From the NCBI GenBank assembly GCA_029821875.1, contig JALGXW010000026.1:1-50369 (forward strand): a stretch of 50,369 nucleotides of DNA, written 5' to 3'. This DNA comes from Candidatus Hebobacterum abditum. Its GTDB lineage: Bacteria > Armatimonadota > Hebobacteria > Hebobacterales > Hebobacteraceae. A program made the translations under genes and the position numbers. The notes beneath the pieces were generated by a model. The model was not told the DNA's origin and did not search any database. It saw only the letters and a program-made list of their open reading frames with translations. Positions 45,590 to 47,110 of the stretch are shown here, one piece after another (position 1 is the stretch's first letter; the number at the start of each line of letters is the position of its first letter).

Positions 45590-45925
45590 TCAGAGAGCCT
45601 CCTCGATCTGCTTCAGGAGGTCAGACAGATAGGAGAGATCCGCCTCCGTGTGCATCTTGCCGAAGTCGGTTTCCGCCAGGATGTCTTCTGTGACCTCGTC
45701 CCTGGTATGGGCCGCGCCGCTCAACACCTGGGCCGTGTAATCGGAGCCGGCCCGATTACGTTCGGCGGCGAGCTTCTTGCGCTGCTCGTGAGTGAGCGTC
45801 TCGAGCGGGACGATCTTCTCTGTCCCCTCGATCAGCTCATCGTAGTAGATGAACTTGTCTCTCTGCGGATCGTAGCACAGGGGTTTGTTTCGATCGGGCC
45901 CCTTTATGTCTGGCAGCGATGGCAT
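45590..45925 (-). CDS. Small partner protein sharing a domain with the caspase-like protease
   Basis: This 111-residue protein has no signal peptide. Its C-terminal 70 residues (LETLTHEQRKKLAAERNRAG, then HTRDEVTEDILAETDFGKMH and EADLSYLSDLLKQIE) align with the N-terminal domain of the protease encoded just upstream (LTSLDALDPDAKIELALKRN, then LVTKAEVIQHIERETELGRE and KAELNYCNDLMQAL). Shared positions include RNR, EV..(H/D)I..ET..G and AEL.Y..DL. It starts 18 nt after the protease stop, behind GGAGGGAGAGGG. It may recruit, inhibit or be cleaved by the protease. Confidence 0.65.
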   Translation of the reverse strand: MPSLPDIKGPDRNKPLCYDPQRDKFIYYDELIEGTEKIVPLETLTHEQRKKLAAERNRAGSDYTAQVLSGAAHTRDEVTEDILAETDFGKMHTEADLSYLSDLLKQIEEAL

Positions 45926-45943
45926 CCCTCTCCCTCCGCCGGA

Positions 45944-47110
45944 TCAGCCGGCGACCAGCGCCGGTAGTTCCTCCTCGGCCTCCATGAACGGGGCGAGCGG
46001 GTGCTTGAGCCACGGTGAGATCTTCGCTGTCTTCGAGCCGTAGATCGCGTCGATCCCGGGGCTCCGGAAGCAGTTCCTGTCCCACGTCAGCCAGGTCGCG
46101 GCGGCCGTGTTGGGCACTTGCGCGATGGCGTGCTTGTACGCTGCCATTGTGACGTTGTGTGCCGCTATGGCCGTGGCACCGTGGGCCATCATCAGATCGA
46201 ACGCACTGTCGCACTTCCAGAACAGTTCTGTTTCGTTCACGGGCGTCCCCGGTTGATCCCAGACGAATGTGAAGTTCTCGTAATACCCGGCATAGGCGCT
46301 GGCGCCCTTCTTGATGACGTCGGGCCCGAGCTTCTGCGCCGTCTTGCAGCTCAAGAGGTGGATCACCTTCCCCTTGACCTCTGCCGGGTCGTAGTTGCCC
46401 ACCTGCAGGATCGGATCGCCGAGGTGTCCCGTGTAGGTGGTGGGGCTTCCATGTCCTATGCCAGAGATGTACACGACCCGCTTGCTCTTCGCTCTGCTAG
46501 CGAACTCCGTTCGCACATCGTGTACCCCCTTCAGTAACATCACGCAATAGCCCTTCTTCTTGAACGCTGGATGCACGTTGCTCATCCGGTAGCTGGCTGC
46601 GCTCTGGGTGATTCCGTCAGTCGTGTTCTCACAGAACAGCGCGCAGTTGCGGAAGTACCGCCACCATTTCTTCCACCAGCTCGGTGGAATCCACCGCCAG
46701 TCCGTGGGCCTGGACGGCACTCTGCGCGCGGCCCCGGGCTTCGGAATCTTCGGCCCTCGAGGGGCGGCGCCTCCTGCGAGCGCCTGCATGAGATCATTGC
46801 AGTAGTTGAGCTCTGCCTTGACGACCTCGCGCCCGAGTTCCGTCTCCCTCTCGATATGCTGGATCACCTCGGCCTTCGTGACCAGGCCGACGCCGATGAT
46901 CCCGAGCGTGAAGTTGGGTTCGAGCCGGTTGCGCTTCAGGGCGAGTTCGATCTTCGCGTCCGGGTCAAGCGCGTCCAAGGACGTCAGAGCGAGAGCGCGC
47001 GTTCGGGCGACATCGCGTGGGCCGATCAGCTTCCCTGTCGGTCCAACGCTAATCGGCTTCTCCGCCGCGTACTCCTTGAGACTGAGTCTTCCGACCTTCA
47101 CCTTCCTCAT
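45944..47110 (-). CDS. Caspase/gingipain-like cysteine protease
   Basis: This 388-residue protein is a predicted clan CD peptidase. The His is in VVYISGIGHGSPTTYTG (His about 220) and the Cys in KVIHLLSCKTA (Cys about 255), each after a hydrophobic strand, the caspase/C25 arrangement; a further AYAGYYENFTFVW block follows. Residues about 40-112 form a helical domain shared with the small protein downstream, and a Trp/Pro/Lys-rich linker (125-155) joins the two parts. No signal peptide is present, so it acts inside the cell. ATG 47110 is chosen over 47125 because AAGGGGGAG lies just before it. The substrate is unknown. Confidence 0.72.
   Translation of the reverse strand: MRKVKVGRLSLKEYAAEKPISVGPTGKLIGPRDVARTRALALTSLDALDPDAKIELALKRNRLEPNFTLGIIGVGLVTKAEVIQHIERETELGREVVKAELNYCNDLMQALAGGAAPRGPKIPKPGAARRVPSRPTDWRWIPPSWWKKWWRYFRNCALFCENTTDGITQSAASYRMSNVHPAFKKKGYCVMLLKGVHDVRTEFASRAKSKRVVYISGIGHGSPTTYTGHLGDPILQVGNYDPAEVKGKVIHLLSCKTAQKLGPDVIKKGASAYAGYYENFTFVWDQPGTPVNETELFWKCDSAFDLMMAHGATAIAAHNVTMAAYKHAIAQVPNTAAATWLTWDRNCFRSPGIDAIYGSKTAKISPWLKHPLAPFMEAEEELPALVAG

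What the first reader, a model, noticed from the sequence alone, without database searches (positions are those of the whole stretch)
45590..47110. Caspase-like protease and a small protein sharing its N-terminal domain
The protease (His about 220, Cys about 255) carries an N-terminal helical domain of about 70 residues that is recognisably repeated in the 111-residue protein encoded 18 nt downstream. Matching positions include RNR, EVxxxIxxET..G and AEL.Y..DL. Shared domains in a two-gene operon point to self-association, an adaptor, or a substrate mimicking the protease's own regulatory domain. I know of no described system with this layout.
Basis: partly seen in the sequence, partly recalled or inferred. 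Interest (0 to 1): 0.72.

Follow-up and report, generated by a model that had tools for sequence, protein, structure and literature searches.

The report
Caspase-like protease with domain-only partner
A caspase-like protease travels across bacteria and archaea with a small neighbour gene that is a free-standing copy of the protease's own regulatory domain, a layout resembling the CARD-only decoys that restrain caspase-1 in primates but with an unrelated domain that matches no known family or fold.

Summary
On the minus strand, a 388-aa protease (47110..45944; H220, C255) is followed after 18 nt by a 111-aa protein. The shared unit is the whole small protein, aligned to residues 1-112 of the protease (BLASTP E=2e-9; profile-profile E=3.4e-19 over 102 columns), and is alpha+beta rather than purely helical. 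A scan of 84,980 species genomes found 14 full-length relatives, in Bathyarchaeota and at least seven bacterial phyla. Thirteen have the small gene directly downstream; the fourteenth contig ends at the protease. Each genome carries one protease copy and one small gene. The two domain versions form separate clades (100/100), protease and small gene co-vary (r=0.84), and in Algoriphagus exactly these two genes occupy a site that is empty in four relatives. The protease fold matches SAVED-CHAT, gingipain and caspases. The small protein (pLDDT 95) matches no PDB fold and no Pfam, NCBIfam or PADLOC family. Looser variants exist: a cis fusion, an archaeal virus pair, and histidine kinase-receiver-caspase operons. 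Most likely the small protein is a dedicated trans regulator, probably an inhibitor or decoy, of a latent cytosolic protease. The direction of regulation and the biological role are untested.

The parts
45944..47110 (-). Caspase-like protease, 388 aa, cytosolic (no signal peptide or TM segment seen in the sequence)
   Evidence: ORF and SD; family of 15 full-length relatives; fold matches SAVED-CHAT, gingipain R, caspase-11
46775..47110 (-). Residues 1-112: N-terminal regulatory domain, homologous along its length to the small protein
   Evidence: BLASTP E=2e-9; hhalign E=3.4e-19; same order of secondary structure in the model
46646..46774 (-). Residues 113-155: Pro/Lys/Arg-rich linker, pLDDT about 60
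   Evidence: Model confidence; alignment
45995..46645 (-). Residues 156-372: clan CD (caspase/CHAT/gingipain-like) catalytic domain with invariant ENTTD, GHG, TGH, LSC-T, LGP and ENF motifs
   Evidence: Alignments; fold search
46451..46453 (-). Codon of catalytic His220 (GHG)
   Evidence: Invariant in A7 and in the wider alignment A10
46346..46348 (-). Codon of catalytic Cys255 (LSC)
   Evidence: Invariant in A7 and A10
45926..45943 (-). 18-nt intergenic spacer with ribosome-binding site GGAGGGAGAGGG for the small gene
   Evidence: Sequence
45590..45925 (-). Small partner protein, 111 aa, a free-standing copy of the N-terminal domain
   Evidence: AlphaFold2 mean pLDDT 94.9; no PDB or BFVD fold match
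45614..45706 (-). Residues 74-104 of the small protein: tail motif (helix, T-x-x-G turn, long helix) that recurs in the archaeal-virus partner, the cis fusion and, probably, receiver tails next to caspases

Best explanation
This is a self-contained two-gene protease module. The first gene encodes a cytosolic caspase-like cysteine protease (His220/Cys255) with its own N-terminal regulatory domain; the second encodes that domain alone. The small protein is most likely a dedicated trans-acting regulator that engages the protease through this domain, either by pairing with the N-terminal domain or by taking its place on the catalytic domain. Probably it keeps the protease latent (a decoy or pro-domain-like inhibitor, working like CARD-only proteins on caspase-1 or like the stand-alone propeptide inhibitors of papain-like proteases) until stress or a parasite disturbs the balance. 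SHOWN: homology of the two domains, conserved pairing, co-inheritance, two-gene mobility, caspase fold, conserved dyad. INFERRED: physical binding, protease activity, inhibition as the direction of regulation, a defence or suicide role.
For: Small gene directly downstream and on the same strand in 13 of 13 assessable loci from a scan of 84,980 genomes, plus one IMG/VR contig. Each of 15 genomes holds one N-terminal copy and one small gene, so the small protein has no other same-domain partner (the one genome with a cut contig shows only the protease copy). Domain versions split into two clades with 100/100 support, and distances of catalytic domain and small protein correlate (r=0.84, p=0.0001): an old duplication held together as a heterotypic pair. 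In Algoriphagus exactly these two genes lie between an amidohydrolase and a dtxR gene that are neighbours in four relatives. No third conserved neighbour. Protease under purifying selection, dN/dS 0.04-0.05. In more distant systems the tail motif sits in trans beside caspases that lack an N-terminal domain: an archaeal virus and, probably, receivers of histidine-kinase operons. It also occurs in cis. This fits a regulator acting on the catalytic domain. In L018 the protease has an in-frame stop while the small gene is intact, as expected if the small protein is the protective half (one case, could be an assembly error).
Against: No experiment. No complex prediction with interface confidence was available; one linked-chain model gave fold only. 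Gene order (protease first) is not that of most antitoxins, and ribosome-site strength does not favour the small gene. The receiver-tail link rests on about 40 residues, and a histidine-kinase linker gives a weak match too.
Confidence: 0.5

Rival explanations
1. Substrate or effector: the small protein is the protease's dedicated target. It docks like the protease's own domain and is cleaved, and its fragment acts on the cell.
For: Caspase-type defence proteases commonly have a neighbouring target (e.g. Craspase and its substrate, from general knowledge; MaOC1 cleaves the antitoxin encoded beside it, PMC7935541). The small protein evolves faster than the protease (dN/dS about 0.18 against 0.04).
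Against: The small protein is a compact confident domain (pLDDT 95) without disordered segment, second domain, TM helix or toxin-like part. Its most conserved positions are shared with the protease's own domain, not a separate scissile stretch.
Confidence: 0.2
2. Activating scaffold: the small protein co-assembles with the N-terminal domains into a dimer or filament that brings protease domains together, as death-fold adaptors do.
For: Homotypic assembly is the rule for EADs and death domains (PMC7159879, PMC8195603); the closest PDB fold for the protease is an activated SAVED-CHAT filament.
Against: An adaptor normally links to a sensor bearing the same domain. No third copy exists in the 15 genomes apart from a truncated remnant in L012 and one marginal hit, and no third gene is conserved nearby.
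Confidence: 0.2
3. The small gene is a non-functional relic of a partial duplication of the protease gene.
For: The two proteins are homologous and adjacent; L012 shows that broken copies of the small gene can arise.
Against: Small genes are one clade across archaea and many bacterial phyla, retained beside the protease in every assessable case, with strong conservation and correlated evolution.
Confidence: 0.03

Closest known systems
EAD-coupled conflict systems and EACC1/EACC2-caspase two-gene systems (Kaur et al. 2020, PMC7159879; Kaur et al. 2021, PMC8195603)
   Same: Small non-enzymatic domain present in two adjacent genes, one of them fused to a caspase-like effector; two-gene caspase systems in prokaryotes.
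   Different: No NTPase, GTPase or STAND core; no TM EACC1 component; no variable C-terminal domains; copies in adjacent genes are not each other's closest relatives; each genome has only the two copies.
CARD-only proteins (COP/Pseudo-ICE, INCA, ICEBERG) beside caspase-1 in primates (PMC3775265)
   Same: A domain-only duplicate of a caspase's own N-terminal domain, encoded next to it, acting as a decoy.
   Different: Unrelated alpha+beta domain with no PDB fold match; old and spread over phyla rather than recent and primate-restricted; function here untested.
Propeptide-like cysteine protease inhibitors, MEROPS I29 (CTLA-2, crammer, BCPI; PMC4089206)
   Same: Free-standing homologues of a protease's N-terminal regulatory region that inhibit in trans.
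   Different: Different protease clan (papain-like) and different domain; here partner and protease are encoded together.
SAVED-CHAT (PDB 8tl0) and Craspase TPR-CHAT (PMC9729208)
   Same: Caspase-like protease fold; best PDB fold match E=2.5e-4.
   Different: No SAVED or TPR domain and no CRISPR genes in the neighbouring genes scanned; no PADLOC hit.
Gingipain R / Pfam Peptidase_C25
   Same: Same clan CD fold (PDB 1cvr); the viral relative weakly matches PF01364, E=0.015.
   Different: Not secreted, no C25 propeptide, no Pfam match for the window family.

Membership tests
Clan CD caspase-like peptidases (C14/C25/CHAT) | His-Cys catalytic dyad in H-G and S-C motifs | tested here: met
   H220 and C255 invariant in 15 homologues and in three distant relatives
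Clan CD caspase-like peptidases (C14/C25/CHAT) | Caspase-hemoglobinase fold | tested here: met
   Foldseek: SAVED-CHAT E=2.5e-4 prob 1.00; gingipain R, caspase-11, caspase-4, CED-3 with prob 0.96-1.00
Clan CD caspase-like peptidases (C14/C25/CHAT) | Match to a curated Pfam family of the clan | tested here: not met
   No Pfam or NCBIfam hit for the window protein; nothing relevant for 15 members. This lowers assignment to a named family, not to the fold.
Clan CD caspase-like peptidases (C14/C25/CHAT) | Proteolytic activity dependent on the dyad | not testable with these tools
   Needs biochemistry
EAD-coupled systems | One copy of the domain fused to a core NTPase/GTPase/STAND component | tested here: not met
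   One N-terminal and one stand-alone copy per genome; no third conserved neighbour
EAD-coupled systems | Copies in adjacent genes more like each other than like copies elsewhere | tested here: not met
   Small and N-terminal versions form two clades, 100/100
EACC1/EACC2-caspase two-gene systems | TM-containing constant partner (EACC1) or EACC2-caspase with variable C-terminal domain | tested here: not met
   Partner is a soluble-looking alpha+beta domain; protease C-termini are short and alike
CARD-only proteins | Death-fold (CARD) domain | tested here: not met
   No death-fold match for a pLDDT-95 model in PDB
CARD-only proteins | Trans binding and inhibition of the caspase with the homologous domain | not testable with these tools
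   Needs biochemistry
Type II toxin-antitoxin modules | Toxicity of one gene neutralised by the other | not testable with these tools
   Needs expression in a laboratory strain; the two-gene unit and the empty site are compatible
SAVED-CHAT / Craspase CRISPR effectors | SAVED or TPR sensor domain, or a CRISPR locus nearby | tested here: not met
   The protease has only the N-terminal domain and the catalytic domain; selected neighbouring genes carry none of these; no PADLOC match

The most novel reading that the evidence does not exclude
A new, minimal and widely transferred caspase module in which an ancient domain-only paralogue restrains the protease in trans. It would be a prokaryotic and archaeal counterpart of CARD-only regulation built on a previously unknown alpha+beta domain. 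The tail of that domain would be a portable caspase switch also used by an archaeal virus and by histidine kinase-receiver systems.
Probability: 0.35. Interest if true: 0.8.

Novelty: new variant of a known kind. Interest (0 to 1): 0.62.

Why it matters
Prokaryotic caspase-like proteases are many, but their direct regulators are mostly unknown and often need large NTPase platforms. Here the regulator would be a 111-residue protein encoded beside a 388-residue protease, small enough for immediate reconstitution. If the small protein inhibits, domain-only restraint of caspases is not a late primate invention but was also found, with another domain, in bacteria and archaea. The domain has no family entry or fold match in the libraries searched here.

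Tried and rejected
Family libraries (Pfam, PHROGs, NCBIfam, PADLOC) gave no usable match to either window protein; the PHROG hits to residues 29-55 of the small protein (E=0.0017 and 0.067) match two short families of unknown function and were not followed. Sequence search of PDB chains found nothing. Single-protein scans of viral contigs found nothing until an alignment with the archaeal-virus relative was used. Plasmids: no match. No relative in 290 other genomes of the window's own phylum, nor in 295 Bacteroidota sampled; the family is rare. No orphan small genes in about 370 genomes of three phyla. Ribosome-site strength as a hint of antitoxin-like excess was uninformative. Structural alignment of all small proteins with a linked protease-small chain failed because they align to the N-terminal domain; read-through translations of loci where both genes are in frame were used instead. 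The viral origin of L004 is doubtful: GC jumps from 0.36 to 0.57 at about 2.4 kb, so it may be a chimeric contig. An EAD-type adaptor role was considered and judged unlikely on copy number and phylogeny.

Full report
WHAT IS THERE. Both genes lie on the minus strand. The protease runs from ATG 47110 to TGA 45946-45944 (388 aa); ATG 47125 is possible but would place the clear ribosome site AAGGGGGAG inside the gene. Eighteen nucleotides later, behind GGAGGGAGAGGG, starts the 111-aa gene 45925..45590.

THE SHARED DOMAIN IS REAL. Two-sequence BLASTP gives 29% identity over 70 residues, E=2e-9. With the protease as query the small gene is the only other place in the whole genome that matches (E=2.8e-5). 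With homologues from elsewhere, the small-protein family and the N-terminal family align over 102 columns at probability 99.2, E=3.4e-19. The shared unit is therefore the whole small protein. A model of the small protein reaches mean pLDDT 94.9 (29-row alignment): short helix, beta hairpin, helices, an isolated strand and a long C-terminal helix. The N-terminal domain shows the same order in a linked model. So it is alpha+beta, about 110 residues, not a 70-residue helical domain.

RELATIVES. No match in Pfam, NCBIfam or PADLOC and none in 290 other genomes of the window's phylum. tblastn of phage records found one distant relative, in a Caudoviricetes record assigned to Methanofastidiosa (BK063666.1, E=5e-9). 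An alignment with it uncovered an IMG/VR contig, and the three together, scanned against 84,980 species genomes, gave 14 full-length relatives (40-54% identity in the best segment). These are in Bathyarchaeota (archaea), Zixibacteria, Chloroflexota, Planctomycetota (2), Bacteroidota (6, including three Algoriphagus isolates), Sumerlaeota, Verrucomicrobiota and a deltaproteobacterium. Most are metagenome bins, so single taxonomic assignments may be wrong; the Algoriphagus genomes are isolates.

THE PAIR IS CONSERVED. In 13 of the 14 loci, and in the IMG/VR contig, a 107-131-aa relative of the small protein follows the protease on the same strand at 10-567 nt; in the fourteenth the contig ends at the protease stop. 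Searching the 15 whole genomes with a domain profile found in each one N-terminal copy and one small gene; the exceptions are the genome whose contig ends, a broken extra small gene in L012, and one marginal extra hit in G295 (E=0.004). No other gene is shared by the neighbourhoods at any consistent place, except between Algoriphagus species. In two Algoriphagus genomes the pair lies between an amidohydrolase and a dtxR gene; in four relatives those two genes are direct neighbours. The unit gained or lost is thus the two genes. The protease is under strong purifying selection (dN/dS 0.04-0.05) and the small gene evolves faster (0.18 in the one pair that could be computed).

EVOLUTION. Small proteins and N-terminal domains form two groups separated by a branch with 100/100 support, and distances between catalytic domains match distances between small proteins (Mantel r=0.84, p=0.0001; 0.77 and p=0.0003 without two of the Algoriphagus). 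One old duplication, then joint inheritance as a heterotypic pair.

FOLD. The linked model (15 sequences, mean pLDDT 82.1, pTM 0.69) matches in PDB the activated SAVED-CHAT filament (E=2.5e-4, probability 1.00), gingipain R, caspase-11, caspase-4 and CED-3. The small protein matches no solved structure with E below 3.8 and no viral model convincingly (best E=0.51). The linked chain is the in-frame read-through of the window pair, used only to get both parts into one model; it says nothing about the interface, because no inter-domain error was returned.

LOOSER VARIANTS. (i) In the archaeal virus, a 66-aa gene directly upstream of the protease carries the tail motif (AETDFGK; BLASTP E=1e-5 in a two-sequence comparison; E=6e-5 among the frames of three loci). 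That protease has no N-terminal domain and ends in a likely TM helix (inspection). (ii) In L023 one 428-aa ORF with a signal peptide (inspection) carries a caspase domain and then the shared domain (E=1e-10). (iii) In five loci of three Bacteroidota genomes a receiver protein, in most of them after a histidine kinase, precedes a 200-aa caspase-like protein that has no N-terminal domain; the receiver domain was confirmed for one (Response_reg E=4e-10). The receiver's 50-residue tail aligns with the small-protein tail at probability 94, E=1.3e-7; against the combined profile the score of 38.8 exceeded all 300 column shuffles (maximum 16.7). Caution: the motif is short, and a histidine-kinase linker in a related genome also matches weakly, so (iii) is likely but not certain homology.

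MECHANISM. The catalytic domain is the constant; the tail-bearing domain is supplied in cis (N- or C-terminal), in trans, or both. In the window family the trans copy has no other same-domain partner in the cell, which argues against an adaptor to a third protein and for direct regulation of this protease. The simplest mechanism is that the small protein occupies the place of the protease's own domain, or pairs with it, and holds the protease latent. Precedents for such trans copies are CARD-only proteins beside caspase-1, described as decoys (PMC3775265), and propeptide-like inhibitors (PMC4089206). That it inhibits rather than activates is inference. A substrate role remains possible but is less natural for a compact single domain. 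A defence or suicide role is inferred from the fold relatives, the patchy transfer as a two-gene unit, and the presence of a variant in a virus.

RELATION TO KNOWN SYSTEMS. It works like EAD-coupled systems in using a small domain twice, but two defining features of those systems were tested and not met. It is not an EACC1/EACC2 system, not CRISPR-linked, not a CARD. The membership claim kept is: clan CD caspase-like fold with conserved dyad. No paper describing this layout was found in four literature searches, which cover open-access papers only.

Noticed in passing
L020:1-1824, L028:1492-3612, L029:1462-2707, L030:1489-3601, L031:1-2115: Operons of (in most loci) a histidine kinase, a receiver with a C-terminal tail motif, and a caspase-like protein of about 200 aa in three Bacteroidota genomes; a two-component-controlled caspase would be notable by itself. 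In L031 the receiver domain is broken but the tail is kept.
   Followed up: partly
L023:1344-2630: 428-aa ORF with signal peptide, caspase-like domain, the shared domain and a further C-terminal domain: a cis fusion.
   Followed up: partly
L003:5711-6654: Circular 38.8-kb Caudoviricetes record assigned to Methanofastidiosa carries a caspase-like protein with a likely C-terminal TM helix and a 66-aa partner.
   Followed up: partly
L018:5998-7149: Protease with a single in-frame TAG after residue 281 while the small gene is intact; nonsense mutation, recoding or assembly error.
   Followed up: no
L012:7308-7541: Truncated extra copy of the small gene between protease and intact small gene.
   Followed up: no
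L004, about 2.3-2.5 kb: Abrupt GC step (0.36 to 0.57) between the module and phage terminase/portal genes; chimeric contig or recent acquisition.
   Followed up: partly
L014 and L016, upstream of 6001: Strongly conserved promoter region with a direct repeat TTTTTAAGTAA, possibly an operator of the module.
   Followed up: no
L011:8876-11017: A gingipain-type Peptidase_C25 protein (Pfam E=8.5e-42) with propeptide lies close to one module.
   Followed up: no
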